Shown here: piece by piece, positions 446-32,486 of the stretch
How positions within the stretch are numbered: the first letter of the stretch is position 1
Layout of the letters: each line of letters starts with the position of its first letter
Origin: Brasilonema angustatum HA4187-MV1
GTDB taxonomy: Bacteria > Cyanobacteriota > Cyanobacteriia > Cyanobacteriales > Nostocaceae
Assembly: GCA_019359695.1 (NCBI GenBank)
Contig: JAHHGV010000066.1
Span: forward strand, 1 to 34,709
Direction of reading: 5' to 3'
DNA: 34,709 bases
Translations under genes and position numbers: made by a program
Notes under the pieces: generated by a model
Told to the model about the DNA's origin: nothing
The model's database searches: none
Seen by the model: the letters and a program-made list of their open reading frames with translations, nothing else

Positions 446-460
446 GAGAAACCGGGTTTC
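446..460. repeat. Short palindrome AGAAACC-G-GGTTTCT
   Basis: A perfect 7-1-7 inverted repeat in the leader. From general knowledge, this AGAAACC/GGTTTCT type recurs widely in cyanobacterial genomes. No T-run follows it, so I do not call it a terminator. Confidence 0.5.
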
Positions 461-801
461 TTTACCCAGCGAAGTTCTTGTGGTGAAACACTAAGATCAA
501 CGATATTAATAGAAAAAGTTTATGCGTATGCGTAGCGTGCGTTTTGCGCTTAGGGTAATGGTTTCGTTCTATATGAATCATATTTTATTTTTGAAAAACA
601 CTATGAGATAATACGGGGGTTTTTTTGTCTAAACAAAGAACAATAATAAATCAGCATTTACGAGCCGCAATCTACAGCAAAGTAGCAGCGCTGAATCCCA
701 AGGGGACATGCTAAGGATATAAAGAATTCCTACGGTTCTGTAGGTTTTCCTTTGAAAAATATTGACATTAAAATTATCTGTAACAAATTTAAAGAAATCT
801 A

Positions 802-3800
802 ATGGACAAAATTGTACAAAAAAGTTATCCACTCTCCTCTGGACAAGAAGCAATGTGGTTTATCCAGCAAATTTCTCCAGAGAGTGTTGCTTATAATATG
901 TTTATTACTACAATAATTAATTCTTGTTTAAATATTGCTATTGTTGAGCGTATATGGAAAAAAATTATTGAAAATCATCCTATTCTCAGAACCACATATA
1001 CTAGTCACAGAGGCAAACCCGTTCAGCAAGTTAATCAGCAATATAAATTTAATCTTGAGGTAATAGATGCCATCAGTTGGAGCGAAGACTACTTAAAAGA
1101 GAAGATCTTTGCTATTACTGACCGCCCTTTTAACTTAGAAAAAGATTTAGTTTTGAGGGTGAGTTTATTTACTCGTTCACCAGAGGAACACATTCTCTTG
1201 CTAACAATGCACCACATTGCAGGTGATCTGTGGTCTTTTGATCTACTGCTAAGTGAATTTCAAACTTTGTATGCTAGAGAAATTGAGCAAGTTAGTCAAA
1301 AGCAAACCCAGGTAGTAGCAAATGATTCGACTAATAACAAATCTTATCTAGATTTTGTCCACTGGCAGTCCGAAATGCTTTCCAGCGTTAAGGGAGAAAA
1401 ACTTTGGCAATACTGGCAACAAAAATTAGCTGGTGAATTGCCAATTTTGAATTTACTTGCAGATAAACCCCGTCCCCCAGTACGGACTTATCAAGAAGCA
1501 GCACATATCTTAAAGCTAGATGAACAGTTAGTTCAAAAACTAAAGAATCTAGCTCTAACTTCTGGAACAAGCCTTTATCAGATTCTGCTAGCAGCATTTT
1601 ACGTGCTACTTTACCGCTACACCAATCAAACAGACATTCTGATAGCAAGTGCAATGAGGGGTCGGTGGGGTAGAGATTTTCAAGAGATTGTCGGCTACTT
1701 TGTTAACCTGATCGTTTTACGAACTTCTGTACAGGAAAACGCTACATTCACAGAATTTCTTGCTCAAGTCAGCAAGATAGTTAGAGAAGCCCAAAAACAT
1801 CAACATTATCCTTTTGCTCTCTTGACAGAACAACTCCAGCCAGAGCGAGATGCCAGTCATTCTCCTATATGTCAAGTTAGTTTTACTTGGCAACGACAAC
1901 GTTGGTGCGAACCAACACAAAATTCATCGCACATTCAAGAACAAGTGCTTCAGATGGAACCATACCTGCTCGGACATCAACGCGGTGCAGACTTGGATCT
2001 AAATTTAATGGTGATGGAAGCTCAGGGAGTATTACAGCTATGCTGGCAATACAATACTGACTTATTTGAAGCGACTACAATCACGGGCATGGAACAGCAT
2101 TTTGTCAACTTGCTTGAAGGTATTGTTGTTAACTCACAGCAGCAAATTTGGCAATTACCTCTGCTAACAGAAGTTGAGCAGCAGTTATTAGCACAATGGA
2201 ATAATACTCAAGCAGATTATCCACTAGATAAGTGTATCCATCAGTTGTTTGAGGAGCAGGTTCAGCGCACCCCGGATGCTGTGGCAGTGGTGTTTGAAAA
2301 CCAACAACTGACTTACCAACAGTTGAATTGTCGCGCAAATAAATTGGCATATTACTTACGCTCTTTGGGTGTAAAACCAGATGTACTGGTAGGGTTGTGC
2401 GTAGAGCGTAGTCCCTTAATGATCATCGGACTATTGGCAATACTCAAAGCCGGTGGTGCATACGTACCCCTTGACCCTGAGTATCCCACCGAGCGTCTGA
2501 GCTTTATGCTAGAAGACACTCAATTGGGAGTACTGCTCGCCCAACAGCACTTAGTTGATAAATTACCCCTAAATCAAGCAAAACTGGTTTTTATAGATCA
2601 AATACAGTCACAACTTGAGTATAACAATCAAGATAATCCTGTTATTGAAGTCACAGCATCTCATCTAGCGAATGTGATTTACACTTCGGGCTCTACGGGT
2701 AAACCTAAAGGTGTGATGGTCGAGCATAAAGGACTAGTTAACTTAGCTCAAGCTCAAATTCAAACTTTTAGTGTGCAATCTCATAATCGCGTTCTCCAGT
2801 TTGCCTCCCTCAGTTTTGATGCTTCTATCTCAGAAATAATCATGGTTTTGGGATCTGGGGCAACACTTTACTTAGGAACAAAAGACTCACTCATGCCGGG
2901 TATGCCCTTAATTGAGCGATTACGCGACTATGGCATTACCCATATCACCCTACCACCATCGGCATTACCAGTCCTACCAGATGAAGAACTCCCATCACTG
3001 CAAACAATCATTGTCGCTGGCGAAGCAAGTTCAGTTGAACTAATCAAAAAATGGTCTGTAGGTAGAAACTTCTTTAACGCTTATGGACCGACAGAAGCAA
3101 GCGTCTGCGCCACAATAGCTAAATGCACTCCAGAGGACAACAAAGTTACCATTGGTAATCCTATTGCTAACACGCAAGTCTATATTTTAGATTCACGATT
3201 ACAACCAGTACCAATTGGTGTGCCAGGAGAGTTGCACATTGGTGGTGCAGGATTGGCAAGGGGTTATCTCAACCGAAATAAGTTAACACAAGAGAAATTC
3301 ATTGCCAATCCCTTCCAAAGAAGCAGAGGAGCAGGGGAGCAGGGGAGCAGGGGGAAAATAGAAGACCAATCCGCTAATTCCGAGCGTTTGTATAAAACTG
3401 GGGATTTGGCGCGTTATTTACCAGATGGCAATATCGAATATCTGGGACGTATTGATAATCAAGTAAAAATACGGGGCTTTCGCATTGAGTTAGGAGAAAT
3501 TGAAGCTGTGCTAACTCAGCTACCAGAAGTTCAAGAAGCAGTAGTCATCGTCAGGGAAGACCAAGACGAAAAACTCGAATCACCACAGAAACTAGAAATA
3601 TCAACCGGCAAAATAGAACTTTGGCCATCCGTAGCCGAATACTATGTCTATGACGACTTACTGTATTACGCTATGACCAACGACCACCGACGCAACAATA
3701 GTTATCAAGTGGCAATTAATCAATTGGTCAAAGATAAAATAGTCGTTGAAATCGGCACAGGTAAAGATGCAATCTTATCCAGATTTTGTGTTGAAGGAGG

Positions 3801-6393
3801 TGCTAAGAAAATTTATGCAATTGAAAGAAGTGAGGAAATCTGCCGCCAAGCCAGAGCTTGTGTTGAAAAGTTAGGCTTAACAGACAAAATCACAATCATT
3901 CATGGCGATGCAACGAAAGTTGATATTCCAAAACTTGCTGATGTTTGCGTCTCGGAAATTGTTGGCACAATTGGTGGCTCGGAAGGAGCAGCAGTAATTA
4001 TTAATAACGCTAGAAGGTTTCTCAAGCCTGATGGTTTGATGCTTCCTGAAAGAAGTGTGACTAAGATGGCTGCTGTCACTCTCCCAGATGAAATATTACA
4101 CAACCCCAAATTTGCTGAAACTCCCGCACATTACACCAGAAAAATCTTTGAGCAAGTCGGCTATCCATTTGACTTGAGGGTATGTATTAAGAAATTCCCG
4201 CAAGCAAATGTTCTGTCCACTGTAGATGTGTTGGAAGACTTAAAGTTTAATGAATTTGTTAGCCCAGAACTTGACCACAAAGTGGAGTTTAAAATTCAAA
4301 AAACTGGGCGAATGGATGGCTTTTTAGTTTGGTTGAATTTGCATACGATTGCTGGTGAAGAAATAGATATTCTCGAACATGAACATTCCTGGGTGCCTGT
4401 TTATTTTCCGGTATTTGAACCAGGAATTGAGGTGGAATACGGTGATGTCATCCAAGCAGTTTGTTCTAGAAAACTTTGCGAAAATAATCTTAACCCAGAT
4501 TATGCAATTAAAGGTCGTTTGCTGAAAAAGAATAGAGAAATTATTAATTTTGAATACGTCTCTTATCATTATAAGAATAATTTTCGACAAACACCTTTCT
4601 ATCAACGATTATTTGCTGATGATGACATCGTTTCCAAGGTTGACACCTCTGCTGAGAAACGTCTGGTAGCTTACTTAGTCCCCGCTCTTGACCATCAAGT
4701 ATTACCCCAGCAAGTTGCTCAATGGCAGAGTGAGTACGTCAGTAACTGGCAAATGCTCTATGAGCAAGCATACGGACAACCGCAAGCATCCATAGATGAC
4801 CCCACATTCAATATCAGTGGTTGGAACAGTTCATACAGCAAACAAGCCATCCCAGATTGGGAAATGCGGGAGTGGGTTGAAAATACAGTCACCCGCATCC
4901 TGTCTCTATCACCACAGCAAGTGTTAGAAATTGGTTGTGGAACGGGGTTACTGCTGTCTCGCGTTGCCAAGAATTGCCTTGAATATTGGGGATGTGATTA
5001 TTCCAGCGCAGCCTTAGCGCACGTTGAGCAGGTATGTAAAACGGTGCTAGGTCTAGATAATGTGCGGCTATTGCACAGAATGGCGGATAATTTTGCAGAC
5101 ATCCCCAAAGGTAAATTCGATACTGTAGTTATCAACTCGGTACTGCAATACTTCCCCAGCGTAGAATATTTGTTGCAGGTTATTGAAGGCGCGATCGCGG
5201 CAATTGGTCAACAGGGTACATTATTCGTGGGGGATGTCCGCAGCTTACCTCTGTTGGGATCATTCCATGCCGCAGTGCAGTTGTCCCAAGCAACTGAGGA
5301 CAGAACTATTGAGCAATGGCAGCGAATGGTACACTCTAGTGTGGCTGCTGAAGAAGAATTGGTGATTGATCCGAGGTTTTTCATTGTCCTCAAACAACGT
5401 TTTCCCCAGATTACTTGGGTAGAGATTCAGCCCAAACGCGGTAACAGTCAAAATGAGTTAACCCAATTCCGTTATGATGTTATTCTGCATATCGGTACTG
5501 ATGTTCAAACAGTGGTAGTTCCTTGGTTAAATTGGCAACTAGATAACCTCTCGTTGACACAGATACAAAATCAACTGCACTCACAACAACCAGAACTTTT
5601 AGGAATCAGGCGTGTACCTAATCAACGAGTGCAGCAAGCACTACAGATTTGCCAATGGTTGGAAAATCCTCCTAGTGTCGAAACAGTGGGGCAACTGCGC
5701 CAACTGCTAACACAACAGCCAACAGTTGGGATCAATCCTGAAGAGTTTTACCAGTTGGGGCAGCATCTCGGTTACACTGTCCACCTAAGTTGGTGGGAAA
5801 GTAGCCAAGATGGTTCATTCGATGTGGTGTTCTATCGCAATCAAGTACATAAGACTGCTTTTTGGGATAGTTCGACAATCACACGCCTTCCTTGGACTGA
5901 CTACACTAACAATCCTCTATACGGTAAGCTAGTCCAGAAGCTCGTGCCCTTAGTGCGGGAATCTCTGCAACAGAAGCTACCCGATTACATGGTGCCGCAA
6001 GCTTTTGTCGTCCTCAACGCCCTGCCCTTAACACCCAATGGTAAGGTGGATCGTCGCGCTTTGCCAACACCTGATACAGCAACTAGAAATCTTTCTACTG
6101 GCTTTGTTTTGCCGCGCACGCCCATTGAAGCTCAACTTGCTCAAATCTGGAGTGAAGTCTTAGGAGTTGAACGCATTGGCGTTAAGGATAACTTCTTTGA
6201 ACTAGGGGGACATTCCCTACTCGCTACCCAAGTTCTGTCAGAAATCAACTCAGCTTTTGGACTCGATCTATCTATACAGATGATGTTCGAGTCTCCCACA
6301 GTAGCAGGGATAGCAGCGTACATAGAAGTAGTGGATTTGGTAACACAAAATTTATCAGTTAAAGAAGTCGGTAGTGAGGTAGTGGAGTTTTGA
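802..6393 (+). CDS. NRPS module 1: C-A-(O-MT)-(N-MT)-T, predicted N,O-dimethyl-Tyr
   Basis: A 1863-residue one-module nonribosomal peptide synthetase. The condensation domain (about 10-455) has active motif HHIAGDLWS at 137-145, which departs from the usual HHxxxDGWS and resembles C domains that take acyl chains. The adenylation domain starts near 473, with YTSGSTG at 627 and NAYGPTE at 759. Specificity residues read DASTIAAVC(K), a Tyr-type code. After core A8 (about 882-900) two methyltransferases interrupt the domain. The first (about 935-1270, SAM motif VVEIGTG at 981) looks like a PRMT-type O-methyltransferase. The second (about 1305-1680, VLEIGCGTG at 1374) is a typical NRPS N-methyltransferase. 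Core A10 (NGKVDRRAL) is at 1746 and the carrier serine at 1805. The likely residue is N,O-dimethyltyrosine. A dispersed purine repeat lies in frame at 3320-3355. No upstream gene supplies an acyl starter. The ATG start lacks a clear ribosome-binding site. Domains are certain; the substrate is inferred. Confidence 0.95.
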   Translation: MDKIVQKSYPLSSGQEAMWFIQQISPESVAYNMFITTIINSCLNIAIVERIWKKIIENHPILRTTYTSHRGKPVQQVNQQYKFNLEVIDAISWSEDYLKEKIFAITDRPFNLEKDLVLRVSLFTRSPEEHILLLTMHHIAGDLWSFDLLLSEFQTLYAREIEQVSQKQTQVVANDSTNNKSYLDFVHWQSEMLSSVKGEKLWQYWQQKLAGELPILNLLADKPRPPVRTYQEAAHILKLDEQLVQKLKNLALTSGTSLYQILLAAFYVLLYRYTNQTDILIASAMRGRWGRDFQEIVGYFVNLIVLRTSVQENATFTEFLAQVSKIVREAQKHQHYPFALLTEQLQPERDASHSPICQVSFTWQRQRWCEPTQNSSHIQEQVLQMEPYLLGHQRGADLDLNLMVMEAQGVLQLCWQYNTDLFEATTITGMEQHFVNLLEGIVVNSQQQIWQLPLLTEVEQQLLAQWNNTQADYPLDKCIHQLFEEQVQRTPDAVAVVFENQQLTYQQLNCRANKLAYYLRSLGVKPDVLVGLCVERSPLMIIGLLAILKAGGAYVPLDPEYPTERLSFMLEDTQLGVLLAQQHLVDKLPLNQAKLVFIDQIQSQLEYNNQDNPVIEVTASHLANVIYTSGSTGKPKGVMVEHKGLVNLAQAQIQTFSVQSHNRVLQFASLSFDASISEIIMVLGSGATLYLGTKDSLMPGMPLIERLRDYGITHITLPPSALPVLPDEELPSLQTIIVAGEASSVELIKKWSVGRNFFNAYGPTEASVCATIAKCTPEDNKVTIGNPIANTQVYILDSRLQPVPIGVPGELHIGGAGLARGYLNRNKLTQEKFIANPFQRSRGAGEQGSRGKIEDQSANSERLYKTGDLARYLPDGNIEYLGRIDNQVKIRGFRIELGEIEAVLTQLPEVQEAVVIVREDQDEKLESPQKLEISTGKIELWPSVAEYYVYDDLLYYAMTNDHRRNNSYQVAINQLVKDKIVVEIGTGKDAILSRFCVEGGAKKIYAIERSEEICRQARACVEKLGLTDKITIIHGDATKVDIPKLADVCVSEIVGTIGGSEGAAVIINNARRFLKPDGLMLPERSVTKMAAVTLPDEILHNPKFAETPAHYTRKIFEQVGYPFDLRVCIKKFPQANVLSTVDVLEDLKFNEFVSPELDHKVEFKIQKTGRMDGFLVWLNLHTIAGEEIDILEHEHSWVPVYFPVFEPGIEVEYGDVIQAVCSRKLCENNLNPDYAIKGRLLKKNREIINFEYVSYHYKNNFRQTPFYQRLFADDDIVSKVDTSAEKRLVAYLVPALDHQVLPQQVAQWQSEYVSNWQMLYEQAYGQPQASIDDPTFNISGWNSSYSKQAIPDWEMREWVENTVTRILSLSPQQVLEIGCGTGLLLSRVAKNCLEYWGCDYSSAALAHVEQVCKTVLGLDNVRLLHRMADNFADIPKGKFDTVVINSVLQYFPSVEYLLQVIEGAIAAIGQQGTLFVGDVRSLPLLGSFHAAVQLSQATEDRTIEQWQRMVHSSVAAEEELVIDPRFFIVLKQRFPQITWVEIQPKRGNSQNELTQFRYDVILHIGTDVQTVVVPWLNWQLDNLSLTQIQNQLHSQQPELLGIRRVPNQRVQQALQICQWLENPPSVETVGQLRQLLTQQPTVGINPEEFYQLGQHLGYTVHLSWWESSQDGSFDVVFYRNQVHKTAFWDSSTITRLPWTDYTNNPLYGKLVQKLVPLVRESLQQKLPDYMVPQAFVVLNALPLTPNGKVDRRALPTPDTATRNLSTGFVLPRTPIEAQLAQIWSEVLGVERIGVKDNFFELGGHSLLATQVLSEINSAFGLDLSIQMMFESPTVAGIAAYIEVVDLVTQNLSVKEVGSEVVEF
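3320..3355. repeat. In-frame purine-rich repeat in A domain 1
   Basis: Short tandem units of GGAGCAGG type encode a Ser/Arg/Gly/Gln-rich linker (RSRGAGEQGSRG) just before the A-domain YKTGD motif. The same kind of sequence sits at the same place in module 3 (12420-12460), while modules 2, 4 and 5 lack it. GGGGAGCAG-type runs are common dispersed repeats in Nostoc genomes. Confidence 0.8.
6384..6387 (+). promoter_or_regulatory. Ribosome-binding site that fixes the NRPS 2 start
   Basis: GGAG lies eight bases before ATG 6396, inside the last codons of the first gene. It supports ATG 6396 over the in-frame TTG at 6390 and suggests translational coupling, since the upstream stop is at 6391-6393. 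Confidence 0.6.
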
Positions 6394-6395
6394 GC

Positions 6396-9300
6396 ATGAC
6401 TAACAGCATTGTTGAATTCATTCGTCACCTGACAAACTTAAGTATTGAACTAGAGGTCGATGGCGTTAGCGGAGCGGCTCCGGAGGAGCTTCGCTTACGT
6501 TGTCATGCACCTGAAGGGGTGTTAACTTCAACACTACGTCAGGAAATAGCTGGGCGGAAAACAGAAATTATGCTGTTTTTACAGCAAGCAAAGCAGGTTA
6601 AAGCTGCTCATCAGTTGTCAATTCAACCAGTGCCACGGGACGGTGAACTACCGCTATCTTTTGCACAGCAGCGGCTCTGGTTTTTGCACCAGCTTTCACC
6701 CGATAGTCGTTCTTATAATATGCTATTGATTCTGCGGCTAGAGGGGTCGCTGAATATAGTTGCACTAGAGCAAAGCTTGGGTGAACTTGTTTGCCGCCAC
6801 GAGATTTTAAGAACAACTTTTCCCACAGTAGACGGAAAACCTGTTCAGCGAATTGCCCCTTTTACTGCCTTAACTTTACCAGTCTATGATTTGCAGGGGT
6901 TGTCAGTTCAGGAACAAACCGACCGGATTCGGGAAATGGCCAATTCTCAGGCATCTCAGTCCTTCGATCTAGCTGTTGGGCCATTAGTGCAATTCACTTT
7001 ACTCCAACTGAGTAACCACGAGTATGTACTGCTGTTGAAGATGCACCACATTATCTATGATGGCTGGTCTTTGAACATCTTCTTTGGTGAGTTATCAATA
7101 GCTTATGCAGCTTTCACTCAAGGATTGCCCAATCCACTAGCCCAACTGCCCATCCAATACGCTGATTTTGCAGTTTGGCAACGCCAGTGGCTGACAGGCG
7201 AAGTCCTAGAACGCCAACTGAATTACTGGCAGCAACAGTTAGCGGGTGTCTCTAGCGTACTAGAACTGCCAACTCATAAACCACGTCCCCCAGTTCAGAC
7301 CTACATAGGTGGAGTTGAGCGTTTTCAACTGGATCGTCACCTCACACAAAGCCTCAAGCAGCTGAGTCAAGAGTCAGACGCAACGTTGTTTATGACTCTA
7401 CTGGCAGCTTTTTTGGTGTTAATTTCTCGTTATAGTGGTCAGTTAGATATTGTTGTTGGCTCGCCGATCGCTAACCGCAACAACAAGAGCGTCGAGCAGC
7501 TAATGGGTTTTTTTGCTAATACCCTAGCATTAAGGGGTGATCTCTCTGGCAACCCCAGCTTTGCTGACTTCTTAGCGCGAGTGCGGCAAACAACCTTGTC
7601 AGCATACGCCCATCAGGACTTGCCCTTTGAGATGTTGGTTGAAAAGCTACAGCCTGAGCGAGATTTGAGTCGTAATCCCCTGGTACAAGTGATGTTTGCC
7701 CTTCAGAACGCTTCACTGTCTTTTGGGGATTTGCCAGGTTTAACCATCCAGAACATGTCCGCGCCAATTGATGAAATGGTCAGGTTTGACTTGGAAGTGA
7801 ACTACTGGGAAGCTTCAGGAGGTTTGGAGGGTGTTTGGAGTTACAGTGCTGATTTATTTGATGCAACGACAATTACTCGCATCGCCCAAAATTTTCAAAC
7901 TTTACTACAAGCAATTGTTGCCAATTCTAAAGAGCGAATTGCAGAATTACCACTGTTGACGACCGCAGAACGTCATCAATTGTTGGTGGAGTGGAACAAC
8001 ACTCAAGTAGACTATTCTGGTGATAAGTGCATCCATCAGTTATTTGAGGAGCAAGTAGAGCGTACCCCGGATGCTGTAGCAGTTGTATTTGTAGACGCGC
8101 AGAGCGCGGCTTCTCGAAGAGTAAATCAACAATTGACTTATCGACAATTGAATTGTCGCGCTAACCAGTTAGCACATTACTTGCAGTCTTTGGGTGTGGG
8201 AGCAGATGTGCTGGTAGGGTTATGTGTAGAACGCTCACTGGAAATGCTTGTGGGAGTACTGGGTATTCTCAAAGCGGGTGGGGCTTATGTACCGCTTGAC
8301 CCTGATTATCCAACTGAGCGTTTGAGCTTTATGCTAGAAGATGCTCAAGTTAAAGTATTGGTAACACAACAGCGATTAGTAGACACTATTCCTCAACATC
8401 AAGCGCATGTCATCTGCTTAGACACCGATTGGGAAAAAATTGCTCAAGAATGCTCCTCAAACCCGGAAAATACCGCAGCACTCGATAATTTAGCTTATGT
8501 CATCTATACTTCTGGTTCTACAGGGAAGCCCAAAGGTGTTTTAGTCAACCACTCAAATGTAGTGCGTCTGTTTGCAGCGACAAACTCTTGGTATCACTTT
8601 AACTCTCAAGATGTCTGGACATTATTCCACTCTTATGCATTTGATTTTTCCGTATGGGAAATTTGGGGTGCTTTGCTTTATGGTGCACGACTGGTAGTAG
8701 TGCCATACCTGGTGACGCGATCGCCTGAATCTTTCTATCAATTATTATGTCAAGAAAAAGTTACTATTCTTAATCAAACTCCTTCAGCCTTTCGCCAGTT
8801 AATTCAAGCTGAACAATCTATGACGGCTACTGGCGACTTAAACTTACGCCTAGTAATTTTCGGTGGGGAAGCCTTAGAAATCAACAGTTTACAACCTTGG
8901 TTTGAACGCCACGGCGATCAGTCGCCTTTGTTAGTGAATATGTATGGAATTACGGAAACCACTGTACATGTAACTTATCGTCCATTAAGCAAAGCTGATT
9001 TGAATGGTACGCCAAGTGTAATTGGTCGTCCGATTCCCGACTTACAGGTGTATGTGCTGGATAAATATAAAAAACCAGTACCAATTGGTGTTGCTGGCGA
9101 AATGTACGTTGGTGGAAAAGGGGTAGCGCGTGGTTATCTAAATCGTCTTGAACTGACACAACAACGGTTTATCTCTAATCCTTTTAGCAAGAACCCCCAA
9201 GCGCGACTATATAAAACAGGAGATAAGGCGCGTTATTTGCCTTCGGGCGAGTTAGAGTATTTAGGGCGCATCGACAATCAAGTAAAAATTCGCGGCTTCC

Positions 9301-12300
9301 GCATAGAGTTGGGAGAAATTGAGGCATTACTAGCTTCTCACCCAGCCGTGTGGGAAAACGTGGTGATGCTACGAGAGGATGAACCGGGCGACAAACGTTT
9401 AGTAGCTTATGTAGTGCCGCAGATTGAACAATCTCCCACAGTCACAGAACTGCGTCACTTTCTGAAAGCAAAGCTACCAGAGTACATGGTGCCAAGTGCT
9501 TTTGTGCTGCTGGAGTCTTTACCCCTGACTCCCAACGGCAAAGTAGATCGCCGTGCCCTACCAAAACCAGAGTTAGACAGCACACTGCTAGAAAAATTTG
9601 TCGCCCCGCGCACACCCATTGAGGAAATGCTGGCACAAATTTGGGCGCAAGTTTTAAAAGTAGAACAAATTGGCATTCATAATAACTTCTTTGAACTGGG
9701 TGGACATTCCCTATTAGCAACGCAACTAGTTTCACGCATCCGCAACATTTTCAAAGTAGAACTACCATTGCGTAGCTTGTTTGCCGCAGCCACAGTTGCC
9801 CAATTGGCACAAAAGATTGAGCAGTTACAGCAACAAGACTTAGAACTAACTGCCCTACCCATTTTACCAAGGGCAAGAGATGCAGAATTGCCACTATCAT
9901 TTGCCCAAGCACGGCTGTGGTTTTTAGACCAGTTCGAGCCGAGCAGTGCTTTCTACAACATACCCTTTGCTTTGCATATAGTCGGAACTCTGAGCGTGAC
10001 TGCCTTAGAACAAAGCTTACAAGAAATAATTCATCGCCACGAAGCCTTACACACCAACTTCATCACAGTTGATGGACAACCAACGCAAATTATTCAAAAA
10101 CAGACGAATTGGACAGTATCAGTTGTTGAGTTGCCACATTTGCCAAGCAGTGAACAAGAAATCGTCACACAGCAATTAGCAAAACAACAAGCTATTCAGC
10201 CGTTTGACCTGGCAAACCAAGCATTAGTCAGGGCAACATTAGTAGTGCTGTCCGAGACAGAACACGTTTTATTACTGTGTATGCACCATATTGTCTCAGA
10301 CGGCTGGTCAATGGGTGTGTTTATCCAAGAACTAGCGGCACTGTACAAAGCTTATTCTCAAGGTCAGCCCTCACCGTTAGCACCACTACCTGTGCAATAT
10401 GCAGATTTCGCCATTTGGCAAAGACAGTGGTTGCAAGGAGATGTACTACAAAGTCAATTGAATTACTGGCAACAAAAACTGGCAGACGCACCAGCTTTAT
10501 TGTCGCTACCCACAGACCGACCCAGACCTGCTGTGCAGACTGACAACGGAGCATATCAAGAGTTTGCACTTTCACAGAAGCTAACTGGTGAACTGACACA
10601 ACTGAGTCAGCAACAAGGAGTCACCTTGTTCATGACGCTGTTGGCAGCATTTGATACGCTACTTTATCGTTACACAAGACAAGAAGATATTTTGGTAGGT
10701 TCGCCAATTGCTAATCGCGATCGCTGTGAAATAGAAGGGTTAATTGGCTTTTTTGTCAACACTTTGGTCATGCGTTCTAACTTGGCAGGCAACCCCAGTT
10801 TTTTGCACCTGTTGGGTCGTGTTCGTTCCATGGCAATGGAGGCATACTCTCATCAGCATTTGCCATTTGAAATGCTGGTGGAAGCATTGCAGCCAGAACG
10901 GAATCTGAGCCATACACCACTGTTCCAGGTAATGTTTGTCCTCCAGAATGCGCCCACATCAGGAGTAGAACTGACTGGGCTAAGTGTCAGTCCATTCCCA
11001 ATCAAAGGCGCAAATGCAAGGTTTGATTTAACTTTAATCATGCATAACACTGCCTCTGGGTTGGTAGGAATTTGGGAGTACAACACTGACTTGTTTGATG
11101 CTAGTACCATAGAGCGAATGACGGGTCATTTTGTTACCTTGCTTGAAGGTATTATTGCTAACCCAGAACAGCAAATCTCCCAATTGCCCCTACTGACACA
11201 ACAGGAACAACAAAAGTTACTTGTCGAGTGGAACGATACAGGGGTGAGTTATCCACTCGATAAGTGCATTCATCAGTTGTTTGAGGAGCAGGTGGAGCAT
11301 ACACCCAATGCAGTGGCAGTAGAGTTTGTAGACGCGCAGAGCGCGGCTTCTCGAAGAGTAAATCAACAACTTACTTACTATGAATTAAACTACCGCGCTA
11401 ACCAGTTGGCGCACTACTTGCGCTCATTGGGTGTAAAACCAGATGTCTTAGTCGGTCTGTGTGTAGAGCGTTCTTTAGAGATGGTCATAGGACTACTAGG
11501 GATTCTCAAAGCAGGTGGTGCATACTTGCCACTTGATCCTGAGTATCCGCCTGAGCGTTTGAGCTTTGTTTTAGAAGATGCTCAAGTTTCAGTTTTGCTA
11601 ACCCAGCAGTCACTCGTTGACAGACTACCTGAGCATCAAGCAAAGCTTGTTTGTTTAGATACTGACGCTGAACTGATTTCCCAGTTCAGTCAAGATAATC
11701 TTATCTCTGGCGTACAAGCCAATAATTTAGCTTATATAATTTATACTTCTGGTTCTACAGGTCAACCTAAGGGTATAGCCATGAATCAGCTTGCCCTTTG
11801 CAATTTGATTATGTGGCATAGGGACAATCTGAAAATTGCTCGTGGAGCAAAAACCCTGCAATTTGCTTCGATTAACTTTGATGTCTCCTTCCAAGAAATA
11901 TTCACCACCTGGTGTTCTGGAGGCACACTGTTCCTAACTGGGGAGGAATTACGCCGAGATGCCTCAGCTTTGTTAGGTTTTCTTCAACAAAAAGCTGTTG
12001 AAAGACTATTTGTTCCCTTTGTTGCCTTACAGCAACTAGCTGAAATTGCTGTTGGTAGCGAATTAGTTAATACTCATTTGAGAGAAATCATTACCGCTGG
12101 GGAACAGTTGCAGATTACTCCCGCTATTTCTCAATGGTTTAGCAAACTAAGTGATTGTACATTGCACAATCATTATGGACCGTCAGAGAGCCATTTAGCT
12201 ACCAGTTTTACTCTGAATAATTCAGTAGAGACTTGGCCGCTACTTCCTCCGATTGGGCGACCTATTGCCAATACACAAATCTACATACTAGATAAATATT

Positions 12301-15300
12301 TACAGCCTGTACCCGTTGGTGTACCAGGAGAATTGTATATTGCTGGTGTCCTTTTAGCGCAAGGCTACTTCAACCGAAGCGAGTTAACAAAAGAGAAATT
12401 TATCCCTAACCCCTTTAAAAGAAGCAGGGGAGCAGAGGAGCAGGGTAGCAGAGGGGAAACTTTTAATTCTTCTGAGTGCCTTTACAAAACAGGAGACTTA
12501 GCACGCTATTTACCTGATGGTAACATCGAATCCTTAGGACGCATTGACAATCAAGTTAAAATTCGAGGTTTCCGTATTGAGTTGGGTGAAATTGAAGCAG
12601 TACTGAGCCAACATAGTCATGTGCAGGCATCTTGTGCGATCGCCCGCGAAGACATTCCTGGGAACAAACGCCTAGTCGCTTACATTGTGCCTCAAAAAGA
12701 GCAGACACTCACAGTTAGCGAACTGCGTGGCTATCTGAAGGAAAAGTTACCAGAATATATGGTGCCAAGTGCAATAGTTATCTTAGAAGCTCTACCGCTT
12801 ACCCCCAACGGTAAACTAGACCGTCGCGCTTTGCCAGCACCAGATTTACACAGCCAATTATTGGACAAATATGTTGCCCCACGTAACCCAATCGAAGAAA
12901 TTCTGTCACTAATTTGGGCGCAAGTGCTAAAAGTAGAGCAAGTGGGTATTTATGATAACTTCTTTGAACTTGGAGGACACTCGTTACTAGCAACGCAACT
13001 AGTTTCACGCGTGCGTACCAGCTTGAAAGTAGAACTACCATTACGTAGTTTATTTGCTGCACCAACAGTTGCAGAATTGGCGCAACCGATTGGGCAATTG
13101 CAGCAACAAGATTTAAAACTCACAGCATTACCCATCGTACCAAGAGCTGAGAATGCAGAATTACCACTGTCGTTTGCCCAAACACGGCTATGGTTTTTAG
13201 ACAAGTTAAACCCAAGCAGCGGCTTCTACAATATACCCTTAGCTTTGCGTCTAGTCGGAACTCTTGAAGTTGCAACTTTAGAACAAAGCTTACAAGAAAT
13301 TATTCATCGTCACGAAGCTTTACGCACCAACTTCATCACAGTTGATGGACAACCAACGCAAATTATTAGGGAGCACTTCGACAAGCTCAGTGCATCGCAG
13401 GGAGCAGGGAACACTTCGACAAGCTCAGTGCATCGCAGGGAGCAAGGGACTGTATCAATTATTGACTGGCAACATCTGCCAACACTTGTACTGAGCGAAG
13501 TCGAAGTGAGTGAACAAGAAATTGCTTTGCAGCAATTGGCGCAAGAAGAAGCGCAACGACCTTTTGACCTGGCAACTGAAGCATTAATCAGGGCAAAATT
13601 AGTAGTGCTGTCCGAGACAGAACACGCCTTATTAATGTGTATGCATCACATTGTTTTTGATGGTTGGTCAATGGGTGTGTTTGTTCAAGAACTAACAGCG
13701 CTGTACAATGCTTATTCTCAAGGTCAACCGTCACCGTTAGCACCACTGTCTGTGCAGTACGCAGATTTCGCCATTTGGCAAAGAGACTGGTTGCAAGGAG
13801 ATGTATTACAAAGTCAGCTGAATTACTGGCAACAACAACTAAAAGATGCACCAGCTTTGTTGTCGTTACCCACAGACCGACCAAGACCTGCTGTGCAGAC
13901 TTTCGCTGGAACATATCAACAGTTTACACTTTCAGTTGAGTTAACTGATAGATTAGTAAAACTGAGCCAGGAGCAAGGTTGTACCCTCTTTATGACGCTG
14001 TTGGCAGCTTATGATACGCTGCTTTACCGCTACACAGGACAAGAGGACATTTTGGTGGGTTCGCCAATTGCTAATCGCGATCGCAGTGATATAGAAGGGT
14101 TAATTGGCTTTTTTGTCAACACCTTAGTCATGCGTTCTAACTTGGCAGGTAATCCAAGTTTTAGCGAATTATTAAGTCGTGTTCGAGAAGTAGCTTTAGG
14201 AGCGTATGCTCATCAAAACTTACCTTTTGAAATGCTGGTAGAAGCATTGCAGCCAGAACGGGATCTCAGCTATACACCACTATTCCAGGTGATGTTTGCT
14301 CTCCAGAATGTGTCCACATCTCAAATAGAGTTGACTGGGTTGACTGTTACTCCATTGATAGCAGAAGGCGCAACGGCAAAGTTTGATTTAAGTTTATTAA
14401 TGCAAAACACCGCTACTGGCCTGGTGGGTTTTTGGGAATACAACACTGACTTGTTTGATGCTAGTACCATTGAGCTACTGACTGATCATTTTGTGACCTT
14501 GCTTGAAGGTATTATTGTTAACCCACAGCAGCAAATCTCACAATTGCCACTGTTGACAGCAGCTGAACAACAGCAGTTATTAGTGGAATGGAATGATACT
14601 CAAGCAGATTATCCTTCTGATAAGTGTATTCATCAGTTGTTTGAGGAGCAAGTTCAGCGCACACCCAATGCTGTAGCAGTCGTTTTTGTAGACGCGCAGA
14701 GCGCGGCTTCTCGAAGAGTAGATCGACAACTAACCTATGAGCAGTTGAACAGTCGTGCTAACCAGTTGGCTCATCACTTACGCTCATTGGGTGTAAAACC
14801 AGATGTGCTGGTGGGTATTTGCGTAGAACGTTCTTTAGATATGGTGGTAGGACTGTTGGGGATTCTTAAGGCAGGGGGAGCTTATGTACCACTTGACCCA
14901 GAGTATCCTACTGAACGCTTGAGCTTTATGCTAGAAGATGCTCAAGTACCAGTGTTGCTGACTCAACAGCGACTTATTGACAGACTTCCTGAGCATCAAG
15001 CAAAACTTGTCTGTTTAGATGAAACTTGGGAACAAATTGCCCAAAACAGTCAAGATAACCCAACCAGTGGAGTCAAAGCTTTTCATCTAGCGAATGTGAT
15101 TTACACTTCAGGATCTACAGGTAGACCTAAAGGTGTCATGGTTGAGCATAAGGGATTATGCAACTTAGCTCAAGCTCAGATTCAAACTTTTGGTGTAGAC
15201 TCTGATAGTCGCGTTCTCCAATTTGCTTCTTTGAGTTTTGATGCTTCTATTTGGGAAGTCATGATGGCTCTAGGTTCAGGTGGAACGCTTTACCTGGGAA

Positions 15301-16520
15301 CAAAAGACTCTCTACTGCCAGGAAAACCGTTGATTGAGCAATTAGGCAATCATTCCATTACTCATATCACGCTACCACCATCAGCGTTAGCAGTTATGCC
15401 TGTGGAGGAACTTCCAGCACTGCAAACAATAATTGTAGCAGGAGAAGCTTGTGCTACTGAATTAATTAGGCAATGGTCTGCTGGCAGAAACTTCTTCAAT
15501 GCCTACGGACCGACAGAAGCTACTGTCTGTGCCACGGTCGCAAAATGCAATGACGATGAGAAAATATCTATTGGTAAGGCGATCGCCAACACACAAGTCT
15601 ACATCTTAGACGAAAATTTACAACCAGTGCCTGTGGGTGTGTCAGGAGAGTTGCATATCGGTGGTGTTGGGTTGGCAAGAGGCTACCTCAACCGTCCAGA
15701 GTTGACACAAGAGAAATTCATCTCCAATCCATTTGAGGAGAAAGGAGAGAGTAAATTATATAAAACCGGAGACTTAGCACGTTATTTACCAGATGGCAAT
15801 ATTGAATACCTGGGACGCATTGACAATCAGGTAAAAATTCGGGGCTTCCGCATTGAATTGGCAGAAATAAAAACACTACTGGGGCAACATGGGGATGTGC
15901 AAAACTGTTGTATCATTGCTCATGAAGGAACTCCGAGTAATACTTGTACTGAGCGAAGTCGAAGTAAGCGCTTAGTCGCCTATGTAGTGCCACAAAAAGA
16001 TGTGACACCCACAACGGATGAACTGCGTCAATTCCTTTCCAATAAACTGCCTGGGTATATGGTGCCAACTGCTTTTGTGATGTTGGAGTCCTTACCCCTG
16101 ACACCTAATGGTAAAGTAGACCGTCGCGCTCTGCCTAACCCAGATTTACATCAGGAACTGTCAGATTATGTCATGCCAAATACAGAAGCAGAAAAAATCA
16201 TTGCTGGCATTTGGCAAAAAGCATTAGCAGTAGAAAAGGTAGGAATTTACAATAATTTCTTCGAGCTAGGAGGTCATTCGTTACTCCTAGTAAAAATTAA
16301 TCAGCGATTGCAAGAAGAATTTGGTTTTGAACTATCCATCGTTGATATGTTTAATTACCCAACGATACATAGTTTAAGCCAATACTTAAGTGCTAAAATA
16401 AAAAAAGAAGATATAATAAATGAAAAAAAATATCGTAGTCAATCTCATAGTGAAAGTAAAACTTTAAGAAACCAACAATTACAATCGCGGCAACAATATC
16501 GCTCTCAGAGAAAAAGGTAA
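6396..16520 (+). CDS. NRPS modules 2-4: Thr, Pro/4-MePro, Phe (predicted)
   Basis: A three-module synthetase of 3374 residues, two bases after the preceding stop. A TubC_N-type docking domain (1-60) should mate with NRPS 1. Order: C (HHIIYDGWS, first His 217)-A-T (carrier Ser 1105); C (HHIVSDGWS, 1297)-A-T (Ser 2196); C (HHIVFDGWS, 2417)-A-T (Ser 3295). Specificity residues read DFWNIGMVH(K), a standard Thr code; DVQFIAHLA(K), Pro-type, which fits 4-methylproline made by the downstream genes; and DAWTIAAVC(K), Phe as in GrsA except for one residue. I see no epimerase or methyltransferase domain. A basic, Gln/Arg/Ser-rich tail (about 3340-3374) probably docks with the PKS. Several dispersed repeats are inserted in frame: in TubC_N, near the start of all three A domains, in the third C domain and late in the third A domain. 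The frame stays open throughout. Confidence 0.95.
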   Translation: MTNSIVEFIRHLTNLSIELEVDGVSGAAPEELRLRCHAPEGVLTSTLRQEIAGRKTEIMLFLQQAKQVKAAHQLSIQPVPRDGELPLSFAQQRLWFLHQLSPDSRSYNMLLILRLEGSLNIVALEQSLGELVCRHEILRTTFPTVDGKPVQRIAPFTALTLPVYDLQGLSVQEQTDRIREMANSQASQSFDLAVGPLVQFTLLQLSNHEYVLLLKMHHIIYDGWSLNIFFGELSIAYAAFTQGLPNPLAQLPIQYADFAVWQRQWLTGEVLERQLNYWQQQLAGVSSVLELPTHKPRPPVQTYIGGVERFQLDRHLTQSLKQLSQESDATLFMTLLAAFLVLISRYSGQLDIVVGSPIANRNNKSVEQLMGFFANTLALRGDLSGNPSFADFLARVRQTTLSAYAHQDLPFEMLVEKLQPERDLSRNPLVQVMFALQNASLSFGDLPGLTIQNMSAPIDEMVRFDLEVNYWEASGGLEGVWSYSADLFDATTITRIAQNFQTLLQAIVANSKERIAELPLLTTAERHQLLVEWNNTQVDYSGDKCIHQLFEEQVERTPDAVAVVFVDAQSAASRRVNQQLTYRQLNCRANQLAHYLQSLGVGADVLVGLCVERSLEMLVGVLGILKAGGAYVPLDPDYPTERLSFMLEDAQVKVLVTQQRLVDTIPQHQAHVICLDTDWEKIAQECSSNPENTAALDNLAYVIYTSGSTGKPKGVLVNHSNVVRLFAATNSWYHFNSQDVWTLFHSYAFDFSVWEIWGALLYGARLVVVPYLVTRSPESFYQLLCQEKVTILNQTPSAFRQLIQAEQSMTATGDLNLRLVIFGGEALEINSLQPWFERHGDQSPLLVNMYGITETTVHVTYRPLSKADLNGTPSVIGRPIPDLQVYVLDKYKKPVPIGVAGEMYVGGKGVARGYLNRLELTQQRFISNPFSKNPQARLYKTGDKARYLPSGELEYLGRIDNQVKIRGFRIELGEIEALLASHPAVWENVVMLREDEPGDKRLVAYVVPQIEQSPTVTELRHFLKAKLPEYMVPSAFVLLESLPLTPNGKVDRRALPKPELDSTLLEKFVAPRTPIEEMLAQIWAQVLKVEQIGIHNNFFELGGHSLLATQLVSRIRNIFKVELPLRSLFAAATVAQLAQKIEQLQQQDLELTALPILPRARDAELPLSFAQARLWFLDQFEPSSAFYNIPFALHIVGTLSVTALEQSLQEIIHRHEALHTNFITVDGQPTQIIQKQTNWTVSVVELPHLPSSEQEIVTQQLAKQQAIQPFDLANQALVRATLVVLSETEHVLLLCMHHIVSDGWSMGVFIQELAALYKAYSQGQPSPLAPLPVQYADFAIWQRQWLQGDVLQSQLNYWQQKLADAPALLSLPTDRPRPAVQTDNGAYQEFALSQKLTGELTQLSQQQGVTLFMTLLAAFDTLLYRYTRQEDILVGSPIANRDRCEIEGLIGFFVNTLVMRSNLAGNPSFLHLLGRVRSMAMEAYSHQHLPFEMLVEALQPERNLSHTPLFQVMFVLQNAPTSGVELTGLSVSPFPIKGANARFDLTLIMHNTASGLVGIWEYNTDLFDASTIERMTGHFVTLLEGIIANPEQQISQLPLLTQQEQQKLLVEWNDTGVSYPLDKCIHQLFEEQVEHTPNAVAVEFVDAQSAASRRVNQQLTYYELNYRANQLAHYLRSLGVKPDVLVGLCVERSLEMVIGLLGILKAGGAYLPLDPEYPPERLSFVLEDAQVSVLLTQQSLVDRLPEHQAKLVCLDTDAELISQFSQDNLISGVQANNLAYIIYTSGSTGQPKGIAMNQLALCNLIMWHRDNLKIARGAKTLQFASINFDVSFQEIFTTWCSGGTLFLTGEELRRDASALLGFLQQKAVERLFVPFVALQQLAEIAVGSELVNTHLREIITAGEQLQITPAISQWFSKLSDCTLHNHYGPSESHLATSFTLNNSVETWPLLPPIGRPIANTQIYILDKYLQPVPVGVPGELYIAGVLLAQGYFNRSELTKEKFIPNPFKRSRGAEEQGSRGETFNSSECLYKTGDLARYLPDGNIESLGRIDNQVKIRGFRIELGEIEAVLSQHSHVQASCAIAREDIPGNKRLVAYIVPQKEQTLTVSELRGYLKEKLPEYMVPSAIVILEALPLTPNGKLDRRALPAPDLHSQLLDKYVAPRNPIEEILSLIWAQVLKVEQVGIYDNFFELGGHSLLATQLVSRVRTSLKVELPLRSLFAAPTVAELAQPIGQLQQQDLKLTALPIVPRAENAELPLSFAQTRLWFLDKLNPSSGFYNIPLALRLVGTLEVATLEQSLQEIIHRHEALRTNFITVDGQPTQIIREHFDKLSASQGAGNTSTSSVHRREQGTVSIIDWQHLPTLVLSEVEVSEQEIALQQLAQEEAQRPFDLATEALIRAKLVVLSETEHALLMCMHHIVFDGWSMGVFVQELTALYNAYSQGQPSPLAPLSVQYADFAIWQRDWLQGDVLQSQLNYWQQQLKDAPALLSLPTDRPRPAVQTFAGTYQQFTLSVELTDRLVKLSQEQGCTLFMTLLAAYDTLLYRYTGQEDILVGSPIANRDRSDIEGLIGFFVNTLVMRSNLAGNPSFSELLSRVREVALGAYAHQNLPFEMLVEALQPERDLSYTPLFQVMFALQNVSTSQIELTGLTVTPLIAEGATAKFDLSLLMQNTATGLVGFWEYNTDLFDASTIELLTDHFVTLLEGIIVNPQQQISQLPLLTAAEQQQLLVEWNDTQADYPSDKCIHQLFEEQVQRTPNAVAVVFVDAQSAASRRVDRQLTYEQLNSRANQLAHHLRSLGVKPDVLVGICVERSLDMVVGLLGILKAGGAYVPLDPEYPTERLSFMLEDAQVPVLLTQQRLIDRLPEHQAKLVCLDETWEQIAQNSQDNPTSGVKAFHLANVIYTSGSTGRPKGVMVEHKGLCNLAQAQIQTFGVDSDSRVLQFASLSFDASIWEVMMALGSGGTLYLGTKDSLLPGKPLIEQLGNHSITHITLPPSALAVMPVEELPALQTIIVAGEACATELIRQWSAGRNFFNAYGPTEATVCATVAKCNDDEKISIGKAIANTQVYILDENLQPVPVGVSGELHIGGVGLARGYLNRPELTQEKFISNPFEEKGESKLYKTGDLARYLPDGNIEYLGRIDNQVKIRGFRIELAEIKTLLGQHGDVQNCCIIAHEGTPSNTCTERSRSKRLVAYVVPQKDVTPTTDELRQFLSNKLPGYMVPTAFVMLESLPLTPNGKVDRRALPNPDLHQELSDYVMPNTEAEKIIAGIWQKALAVEKVGIYNNFFELGGHSLLLVKINQRLQEEFGFELSIVDMFNYPTIHSLSQYLSAKIKKEDIINEKKYRSQSHSESKTLRNQQLQSRQQYRSQRKR
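6463..6497. repeat. Dispersed repeat inserted in the TubC_N docking domain
   Basis: A GC-rich, partly palindromic sequence (GGAGCGGCTCCGG core) encodes about ten extra residues, VSGAAPEELR. They break the pattern shared with the TubC_N domain of NRPS 3, where the matching stretch runs directly from VEGNRL to APEGVLT. A related repeat lies at 25576-25615. Confidence 0.75.
8091..8123. repeat. 33-bp in-frame repeat, copy 1 (module 2 A domain)
   Basis: Encodes VDAQSAASRRV between the VVF strand and the QQLTY motif near the A-domain start. Modules 1 and 5 have only EN at this spot. The copies at 11328 and 14688 are identical in all 33 bases. Confidence 0.9.
11328..11360. repeat. 33-bp in-frame repeat, copy 2 (module 3 A domain)
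   Basis: Identical to 8091-8123 and inserted at the same codon position of the second A domain in this gene. The identity suggests recent copying or gene conversion between modules. Confidence 0.9.
12420..12460. repeat. In-frame purine-rich repeat in module 3 A domain
   Basis: GGAGCAG-type units encode RSRGAEEQGSRGE before the YKTGD motif, at the same site as in module 1 (3320-3355) but with different base substitutions. Confidence 0.75.
13374..13444. repeat. Two 33-bp direct repeats in module 4 C domain
   Basis: Bases 13374-13406 recur at 13412-13444 (period 38). The core CACTTCGACAAGCTCAGTG is a dispersed-repeat motif. Because 38 is not a multiple of three, the two copies are read in different frames, giving DKLSASQGAG and then TSSVHRREQG. 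Together they add roughly 20 residues absent from the matching loop of the module 3 C domain. Confidence 0.9.
13483..13509. repeat. Dispersed repeat in module 4 C domain, inverted orientation
   Basis: ACTGAGCGAAGTCGAAGTG is a variant, in the opposite orientation, of the repeat at 13374-13444. It encodes about eight extra residues (LVLSEVEV) between HLPT and SEQE; the module 3 C domain has HLPSSEQE without it. A near-identical copy is at 15942-15968. Confidence 0.85.
14688..14720. repeat. 33-bp in-frame repeat, copy 3 (module 4 A domain)
   Basis: Identical to 8091-8123 and 11328-11360, at the same place in the third A domain of the gene. Confidence 0.9.
15942..15968. repeat. Dispersed repeat near the end of module 4 A domain
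   Basis: Shares a 24-base identical run with 13483-13506. It encodes an extra TCTERSRS stretch just before KRLVAYVVP, where the other A domains have only a few residues. Confidence 0.85.
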
Positions 16521-28409: not shown

Positions 28410-29222
28410 ATGTCAGAGAACTGCATTATGACTACTTTTCATCAGATGAAATCCAAGGTGTGGGAAAAAAAGCAAGAGTATCCCTTAACTACAGAGTCTT
28501 TAAGAATGCTCTTGAATAACCGAACTCCTTTAATTCGATTAAAAGAATTTGCTACACCACAAGAGTGTGAGAGTTTAGTAGCTCAAGCTCAATTGTTCAA
28601 CTTTGACTGCTATCAAGATGTGCATCCCAAGATTGAGCGAATTGGTATCACAGTATTTGAATATAATCACATTAGTAAAACAGCTTATTTTCAAGCAGTA
28701 GAACGCACAACTAAATTAAGAGACTGCATTATGGCAGCGTCTTTCAATCCATTAGAACGCTTAATGGTAAAAATTCGACAGTGTACAGGCGCGACTGTGC
28801 GAATTGCTTCAGAACCCTTCTATGGTAATTATTATGCAGGGCTGATTAGAAAAATAGAGCAAGGTACTCAACTTCATATTGATTATGCCCCGTTAGAACA
28901 ATCCCAATGGGAAGTTGGTACAGTTATTTCTCAACTTTCCTGGAATTTGTATTTAAAATTTTCTCCTAATAATCATGGCAAAACACGTATTTACGGTCGC
29001 CAGTGGCAACCAGGAGATGACCAATATAAACTCGATTCCTACGGCTATAGTGATACAGTAATTGCAGATGCAGATATGATCGCTTTCCAACCTTATGTAG
29101 GAGATGTATTCATTTTCAATACACGCAATTTTCACACTGTTGAGCCGATGAATGGACGACGTGTGACTTTCACTTCCGCGATTGGATTACTACCTAACGG
29201 TGAAATTATTTTGTGGTCTTGA
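28410..29222 (+). CDS. Fe(II)/2-oxoglutarate oxygenase, probable leucine 5-hydroxylase
   Basis: A 270-residue non-haem iron dioxygenase. The metal triad is His156 and Asp158 (QLHIDYA) with His242 (NFHTVEP), followed by an Arg in GRRVTF that would bind 2-oxoglutarate. It comes directly before the nosE-type gene. In cyanobacterial and griselimycin pathways, 4-methylproline starts with hydroxylation of the delta carbon of Leu by such an enzyme (LdoA of Nostoc punctiforme, GriE). I therefore infer that it makes 5-hydroxyleucine. The alternative is a tailoring hydroxylase of the peptide. No strong ribosome-binding site precedes ATG 28410; an in-frame ATG at 28428 would drop six residues. The 59-base gap before it holds only an imperfect inverted repeat around 28349-28391. 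Confidence 0.85.
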   Translation: MSENCIMTTFHQMKSKVWEKKQEYPLTTESLRMLLNNRTPLIRLKEFATPQECESLVAQAQLFNFDCYQDVHPKIERIGITVFEYNHISKTAYFQAVERTTKLRDCIMAASFNPLERLMVKIRQCTGATVRIASEPFYGNYYAGLIRKIEQGTQLHIDYAPLEQSQWEVGTVISQLSWNLYLKFSPNNHGKTRIYGRQWQPGDDQYKLDSYGYSDTVIADADMIAFQPYVGDVFIFNTRNFHTVEPMNGRRVTFTSAIGLLPNGEIILWS

Positions 29223-29278
29223 AGCTGATCAGTAGGAGGTAGGAAGCAATTTAGTAAACATAGTGAGGAAGTGATTCT

Positions 29279-30382: not shown

Positions 30383-30416
30383 ATATTTTGATTACCAATA
30401 AACCTGAGGATTATCT

Positions 30417-32381: not shown

Positions 32382-32432
32382 AATTTTAGTCTTCCGTGGA
32401 TTTTTTTATTTGGTAATTATGACTGATTATTG

Positions 32433-32448
32433 AATACTAAAAAGTATT
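32433..32448. other. Small inverted repeat before the exporter gene
   Basis: AATACT-AAAA-AGTATT forms a short perfect hairpin in the 105-base AT-rich gap between the reductase and exporter genes. It is too weak to be called a terminator; it may be an operator or chance. Confidence 0.3.
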
Positions 32449-32486
32449 AAATTCCATTTTTAAAAATTGCAGTTGATTTGTCAAAT

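What the first reader, a model, noticed from the sequence alone, without database searches (positions are those of the whole stretch)
3615..5850. One A domain carries both an O- and an N-methyltransferase
Two distinct SAM-binding domains (motifs VVEIGTG at residue 981 and VLEIGCGTG at 1374) sit in tandem between cores A8 and A10, with a short A-domain remnant (KRLVAYLVP, about 1287) between them. The first is PRMT-like and fits side-chain O-methylation; the second is a classic NRPS N-methyltransferase. With the Tyr-type code this predicts N,O-dimethyltyrosine made on one carrier. Doubly interrupted A domains are known but rare.
Basis: partly seen in the sequence, partly recalled or inferred. 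Interest (0 to 1): 0.8.

Follow-up and report, generated by a model that had tools for sequence, protein, structure and literature searches.

The report
Two methyltransferases inside one A domain
A cyanobacterial peptide-making enzyme carries two methyl-adding domains inside its amino-acid-selecting domain, very probably to make doubly methylated tyrosine; that combination is known, but here the two sit in two different loops instead of back to back.

Summary
Confirmed. ORF1 (802-6393, 1863 aa) is C-A-T; its A domain is interrupted twice between A8 and A9: a PRMT-type methyltransferase (about 938-1271) and a TioS-type backbone N-methyltransferase (about 1301-1700). Both keep nearly all family-conserved residues, and the code is Tyr-type. 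N,O-dimethyl-Tyr on one carrier is the best reading. The kind is known: LynB3/LynB5 and HcaA are described as Tyr modules with both domains; ColG does the same on Ser.

Here, in Nostoc sp. UCD121 and in a Tistrella mobilis plasmid module, it stands between the two. Aligned to the solved TioS structure, the O-methyltransferase falls in the preceding hairpin loop. So this is a "two-loop" variant; I found no description of it, but the main classification papers were not held.

Trees place both Nostoc O-MTs among single-insert O-MTs, and the window's N-MT beside a single-insert N-MT: a mosaic. The rest of the cluster resembles minutumamide/nostopeptolide pathways. No activity could be tested.

The parts
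802..6393 (+). ORF1, NRPS module C-A(O-MT, N-MT)-T, 1863 aa
814..2190 (+). Condensation domain (HHxxxD present as HHIAGD, residue 137 on)
   Evidence: Pfam PF00668 E 7e-100; among the loci held, nearest outside Nostoc UCD121 are the C domains of L059 (46%) and of L091 and L025 (43%)
2248..3270 (+). A-domain core; code read by eye as D-A-S-T-I-A-A-V-C (Tyr type)
   Evidence: Pfam PF00501 E 8e-87; residues read against relatives
3445..3501 (+). A8 core motif GRIDNQVKIRGFRIELGEI
3538..3564 (+). A-subdomain strand AVVIVREDQ, last A-domain element before the O-MT
   Evidence: aligns to 5wmm up to chain residue 472
3613..4614 (+). O-methyltransferase domain, PRMT type (SAM motif 3742; Glu at residues 1052 and 1061 sit like the PRMT double-E pair, a motif recalled, not tested)
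4657..4683 (+). KRLVAYLVP, the only copy of this A-subdomain strand, between the two methyltransferases
4702..5901 (+). N-methyltransferase domain, TioS/5wmm type (SAM motif 4921)
5977..6054 (+). End of the A domain: A9 (LPDYMVP) to A10 (NGKVDR)
6133..6324 (+). Carrier (T) domain
   Evidence: Pfam PF00550 E 5e-18
6390..16520 (+). ORF2: TubC_N docking domain, then three C-A-T modules, codes read by eye as Thr, Pro type and Phe type
   Evidence: Pfam gives 3 A, 3 T and 4 Condensation stretches, which I read as three C domains, one split
16523..20806 (+). ORF3: PKS module KS-AT-MT-ACP
20911..28350 (+). ORF4: TubC_N, C-A-T (Tyr-type code), C-A-T (code not assigned), TE
28410..31301 (+). Tailoring genes: WelO5-family oxygenase (28410-29222), zinc alcohol dehydrogenase (29279-30382), cupin/JmjC oxygenase (30417-31301)
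31560..34514 (+). Pyrroline-5-carboxylate reductase-like gene and ABC transporter

Best explanation
ORF1 loads L-Tyr onto its own carrier, and two methyltransferase domains held on two successive loops of the A domain's small C-terminal subdomain act on it: the PRMT-type domain methylates the phenol oxygen, the TioS-type domain the alpha nitrogen. The C domain then joins the resulting N,O-dimethyl-Tyr to an acyl starter, and the chain passes to ORF2. The small subdomain stays whole because its strand KRLVAYLVP is kept once, between the two inserts. Shown here: domain content, insertion points, conserved residues, intact frame. Inferred: both activities, substrate, order of reactions, acyl starter, role of the strand.
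For: O-MT: CARM1 and other PRMTs by sequence, PRMT entries behind 5wmm by Foldseek. It is 64.8% identical to the single-insert O-MT of a Nostoc sp. ATCC 53789 plasmid module whose neighbours (PKS, P450, dioxygenase, panD, FAD oxidoreductase) fit the cryptophycin cluster (cluster name and its O-methyl-Tyr unit recalled). N-MT: 5wmm E 5e-53. Columns at 95% or more conservation: O-MT 98 of 101 kept against 22 relatives, N-MT 49 of 49 against 80. Tyr-type code; all but one of the same pocket letters occur in the Moorena bouillonii single O-MT module L026 and in the Tistrella tandem (read by eye). In print: LynB3 and LynB5 (PMC10127204) and HcaA (PMC10949194) are Tyr modules with both MTs; ColG is reported to N,O-dimethylate Ser (PMC10127204 passage and Table 2 of PMC11355689). 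Two-loop placement: the solved TioS structure aligns in two pieces, query residues up to 921 on chain 372-472 and from 1277 on chain 467-924, so the 355-residue O-MT block falls in a hairpin loop that is uninterrupted in 5wmm.
Against: No activity, substrate or product was tested. The AlphaFold model is weak where the two strands lie (block means 54-70) and gave no coordinates, so strand pairing was not measured. Foldseek TM-scores are under 0.5 throughout (5wmm 0.45, rmsd 22; PRMTs mostly 0.33-0.42 by target, rmsd 12-15), so the O-MT's barrel half and the domain arrangement are not established by the model. The O-MT departs from its family at 3 of 101 conserved columns (E1044K, I1081L, L1198V). 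HcaA, also a first module beginning with a C domain, is reported to give N,N-dimethyl-O-methyl-Tyr, so the degree of N-methylation is open.
Confidence: 0.8

Rival explanations
1. The module makes N,N,O-trimethyl-Tyr as a free N-terminal cap, the C domain being idle.
For: HcaA, a C-A-OMT-NMT-PCP first module, is reported to do this (PMC10949194, passages). In Nostoc UCD121 the gene upstream of the homologue is an ABC transporter, not a PKS.
Against: The window's C domain keeps HHxxxD. Among loci held, its nearest C domains outside UCD121 include those of L059 and L091, modules that by recalled identity (CrpC, ColG) take polyketide or fatty acyl donors.
Confidence: 0.13
2. Only one of the two methyltransferases is active, so Tyr is singly methylated.
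For: In engineered A domains, two M domains put between a8 and a9 gave no detectable methylation (PMC11355689, passage).
Against: Conserved columns are kept in both, but for 3 of 101 in the O-MT, and the frame is intact; natural tandems are reported with doubly methylated residues.
Confidence: 0.08
3. The apparent tandem is an assembly or annotation artefact.
For: The window starts at base 1 of contig C23; NRPS repeats can be misassembled.
Against: Nostoc sp. UCD121, a separate assembly, has the same tandem with the same junction lengths (42 and 28 residues) at 84% identity.
Confidence: 0.02

Closest known systems
LynB3 and LynB5, lyngbyapeptin B (Moorena bouillonii; PMC10127204)
   Same: Tyr module with an arginine-methyltransferase-like O-MT followed by an N-MT inside the A domain; N,O-dimethyl-Tyr proposed
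   Different: Sequence not held, so the strand position was not tested
HcaA, hectoramide B, and VatN, vatiamide (PMC10949194)
   Same: Modules with both an O-MT for Tyr and an N-MT; HcaA is a first module with a C domain
   Different: HcaA is said to give N,N-dimethyl-O-methyl-Tyr; sequences not held, strand position not tested
ColG, columbamide (A-Ms-Mb-A, a8-a9; Table 2 of PMC11355689)
   Same: Two methyltransferases in one A domain, reported to N,O-dimethylate
   Different: Acts on Ser. In the Moorena bouillonii PNG locus L091, which I take for ColG by recall, MT1 is of FkbM type (PF05050 E 8e-20) and the strand precedes both inserts
Tyr-type module of Tistrella mobilis KA081020-065 plasmid pTM3 (L060/L062), taken as the didemnin synthetase
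   Same: Same O-MT and N-MT types, Tyr-type code, and the same order O-MT, strand, N-MT
   Different: 36-40% identical; alphaproteobacterium. That this locus is the didemnin cluster is recalled; a paper names this strain as the one in which didA-didJ was worked out, but I did not match the genes
TioS A4-M4-A4, thiocoraline (PDB 5wmm)
   Same: N-MT type and insertion point after the strand
   Different: A single insert

Membership tests
Dual-interrupted A domain (ColG/LynB3 kind) | Two methyltransferase domains between A8 and A9 of one A domain in one open frame | tested here: met
Dual-interrupted A domain (ColG/LynB3 kind) | First MT of side-chain type, second of backbone N-MT type | tested here: met
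   by homology only; O-MT tree, N-MT tree
Dual-interrupted A domain (ColG/LynB3 kind) | Adenylation plus two methylations in vitro | not testable with these tools
   needs protein
Back-to-back (one-loop) form of the tandem, as in L010, L025, L093/L115, L114, L091 | Both MTs follow the KRLVAYxVP strand with no strand between them | tested here: not met
   The strand lies between the MTs in the window, L007/L064 and L062
Protein arginine methyltransferase family (O-MT) | Homology to PRMTs over the SAM-binding half | tested here: met
   (CARM1, query residues 21-186 of 349); Pfam PRMT5 above its cut-off
Protein arginine methyltransferase family (O-MT) | Whole fold including the beta-barrel half | tested here: inconclusive
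   Some sequence matches run on (1g6q, query 19-289), but most stop earlier; Foldseek E about 1e-15 over 320-360 columns, yet TM under 0.5
NRPS N-methyltransferase, TioS type | Homology to 5wmm over the whole domain with conserved motifs | tested here: met
Tyr-activating A domain | Tyr-type specificity code | tested here: met
   read by eye as DASTIAAVC; that this is a Tyr code is recalled; Phe is the nearest alternative

The most novel reading that the evidence does not exclude
Doubly interrupted A domains come in two architectures: back to back in one loop, and 'two-loop', in which the methyltransferases occupy successive loops of the A subdomain with its strand kept between them. The two-loop form arose at least twice (Nostoc and Tistrella), each time keeping exactly one strand copy, which would make a second, independent insertion site inside a8-a9 available to evolution and to engineers.
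Probability: 0.5. Interest if true: 0.55.

Novelty: new variant of a known kind. Interest (0 to 1): 0.42.

Why it matters
Engineered A domains with two M domains between a8 and a9 are reported to show no methylation (PMC11355689, passage). A natural arrangement that gives each methyltransferase its own loop, and that occurs in two distant lineages, offers a testable alternative for building trifunctional A domains. It also tells genome miners to expect N,O-dimethyl-Tyr in a minutumamide/nostopeptolide-like Nostoc peptide.

Tried and rejected
Rejected: KRLVAYLVP as a leftover of a duplicated A domain: one copy only, and the copy expected before the O-MT is missing in the window and in L007. Rejected: chance motif hits (E-values). 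Considered: descent of the tandem as a unit from one ancestor with Tistrella. The N-MT data reject one clade of window, L007 and Tistrella (AU p 0.001), but the O-MT data do not (p 0.075); L062 is a very long branch and the N-MTs recombine, so independence is favoured, not shown. The O-MT data also do not reject window and L007 as sisters (p 0.31), while the N-MT data do (p 0.0019): the window's N-MT is nearest to an N-MT-only module of an uncultured Scytonema (L008; 94% over residues 1501-1700). I read this as recombination, although loss of the O-MT in L008 is also possible. The groups for these tests were named after first trees had been seen, and rows were dropped for them: O-MT 21 rows (L023, L116, L117 left out), N-MT 27 chosen rows of the 82.

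Weak or failed: the AlphaFold models are poor around the strand, and no coordinates were available. The second model (an Okeania tandem, strand first, pLDDT 68.4) adds only that the two strands follow each other there (47-52 and 62-66). The upstream A core is about equally like O-MT-only and N-MT-only modules, so its origin stays open. Alignments A1 and A2 mis-set single-insert rows (seen for A2) and were not used for a model. In one search the N-MT and O-MT of two tandems (L010, L025) were listed apart because of de-duplication; I counted them as tandems. L023 is cut by its contig end inside the O-MT, so whether it is a single insert is unknown and it is not in the recount.

Literature: searches listed no paper on the strand placement as far as titles, abstracts and the passages read show. 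The two interrupted-A-domain papers (PMC8341866, PMC9056781) and the ColG paper were not held, so earlier notice of the two-loop form cannot be excluded. Seen: passages of PMC11355689, PMC10127204, PMC10949194, PMC5577590, PMC8097286, PMC9964501, PMC10811503; passages and the first two of six parts of PMC12184294. The others were seen in search listings only.

Full report
What is there. ORF1 (802-6393) encodes C-A-T. Five of the window's six A domains span 91-104 residues from A8 to A10; this one spans 870. Two domains fill the difference. The first (about 938-1271) matches arginine methyltransferases (CARM1 E 7e-19); the second (about 1301-1700) matches the N-methyltransferase of the solved interrupted A domain 5wmm (E 5e-53). 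An AlphaFold model of residues 866-1765 (35 aligned rows, mean pLDDT 72.7) is matched by Foldseek to 5wmm over 860 columns and to PRMTs over mostly 320-360 columns, with low E-values but TM-scores under 0.5. Both domains keep their family-conserved residues: 98 of 101 columns against 22 relatives for the O-MT and 49 of 49 against 80 for the N-MT.

What it most likely does. The pocket residues read D-A-S-T-I-A-A-V-C, which I recall as a Tyr-type code. The O-MT family occurs alone in modules whose products, by recall, carry O-methyl-Tyr: L059 (Nostoc sp. ATCC 53789; neighbours fit the cryptophycin cluster) and L026 (Moorena bouillonii PNG; apratoxin). Published Tyr modules with both domains are LynB3 and LynB5 (PMC10127204) and HcaA (PMC10949194). 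So N,O-dimethyl-Tyr on one carrier is the best reading; N,N,O-trimethyl-Tyr, reported for HcaA, is the main rival. Nothing here tests activity.

The unusual part. In the window's ordinary A domains the strand KRLVAYxVP follows the AVVIVRED-type strand after a short turn. A recount over all 159 loci held found 121 distinct A domains with an insert of any type between A8 and A9; a strand motif lies within 75 residues after A8 in 118 of them, and the three exceptions are the window, Nostoc sp. UCD121 (L064, the same place as L007) and the Tistrella mobilis plasmid module (L062). The set is sequence-distinct but holds close relatives, and 13 further A8 sites with no A9 in reach were left out. All 114 domains with a shorter (single) insert have the strand first. 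An earlier count by domain type agrees: 72 of 72 N-MT domains (61 by pattern, 11 by eye) and, by pattern or eye, all 16 placed O-MT domains outside tandems, one of which (L023) is cut by its contig end; L117 was read by eye with the same result; four N-MT domains without a recognised A8 were not counted. Among eight tandems the strand stands before both inserts in five (L010/L070, L025/L065, L093/L115, L114, L091) and between them in three. The solved TioS structure shows where this puts the O-MT: query residues up to 921 align to chain 372-472, and those from 1277 on to chain 467-924, so the O-MT block sits in the turn before the strand and the N-MT after it. The text just before the strand in the window (VDTSAEKRLVAY) resembles the corresponding turn of N-MT-only modules (for example VDNTGDKQLVAY in L008).

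Where it came from. In the O-MT tree the window and L007 lie inside a clade of eight whose other six are single inserts (support 100/99). In the N-MT tree the window is sister to the N-MT-only L008 (100/100), and the AU test rejects the window and L007 N-MTs as sisters (p 0.0019); the O-MT data do not (p 0.31). Third-position G+C is 32.0% in the window's O-MT and 43.8% in its N-MT. In relatives, O-MT cassettes are at 24.6-33.5%; N-MT-only segments vary widely (26.5-55.7%), those of the Nostoc lineage nearest the window being at about 43-48%. I infer that the two parts had separate histories. Whether the Tistrella module is an independent case is favoured by the N-MT test (p 0.001) but not settled by the O-MT test (p 0.075).

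How rare. Matches spanning both domains were found in 2 of 217 genomes of the family and, in an evenly drawn phylum sample, in 1 of 386, the window's own. In the order sample (388 genomes) the window's own genome and two others gave a spanning row; two more tandems known from other calls appear there only as O-MT rows. Only the best two to four candidates of each genome were scored in these three searches, so these are lower bounds.

Setting. ORF2-ORF4 read Thr, Pro type, Phe type, PKS(MT), Tyr type, one unassigned residue, TE (codes by eye), followed by dehydrogenase and P5C-reductase genes, two oxygenases and an ABC transporter. Minutumamides contain Thr, 4-methyl-3-hydroxyproline and a Phe-derived, C-methylated keto acid, and nosE/nosF make methylproline (PMC12184294). 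The window looks like a relative whose side chain begins with doubly methylated Tyr; this is inference from order and codes, and no direct sequence comparison with those clusters was made. The region upstream is off the contig.

Verdict. The observation and the main interpretation hold; the kind is known; the placement of the strand is a variant that none of the papers I could read describes in the passages seen, with the caution that the classification papers were not available.

Noticed in passing
L158:4696-6015 (-) and L159:3793-5085 (+): Stand-alone genes of 439 and 430 aa with a TubC_N docking domain and the same PRMT-type O-MT; L158 sits between a Thr-type NRPS gene and an NRPS gene followed by a PKS gene like ORF3. 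L158 keeps a degenerate strand (SDKRLVTDVVPQ) before the O-MT. Four genomes have O-MT matches in frames of 437-460 aa; two were looked at. Looks like an O-MT split out of an A domain to act in trans.
   Followed up: partly
L012, L013, L016, L017 (e.g. L012:14869-15741): A third insert type: about 305 aa alone after KRLVAYIVP, an FkbM-type methyltransferase in the one tested (L012, PF05050 E 8e-18), the same family as MT1 of the ColG-like L091.
   Followed up: partly
window 26158-26600 (ORF4, last A domain): Specificity letters read by eye as D-V-L-H-F-A-L-L-A fit no code I recall.
   Followed up: no
window 28410-29222 and 30417-31301: Two different oxygenases (WelO5 family; cupin/JmjC) beside the methylproline-type genes; they may hydroxylate Leu or methylproline.
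   Followed up: no
window 1-801: A/T-rich stretch at the start of contig C23 without an ORF of 100 aa, with near-repeated TTAACTGTCTTAAATG units around 200-280; the starter genes, if any, are not on this contig upstream of ORF1.
   Followed up: no
L007:7259-12799, residues about 137-143: The C domain of the UCD121 homologue has NHIAGD in place of HHIAGD.
   Followed up: no
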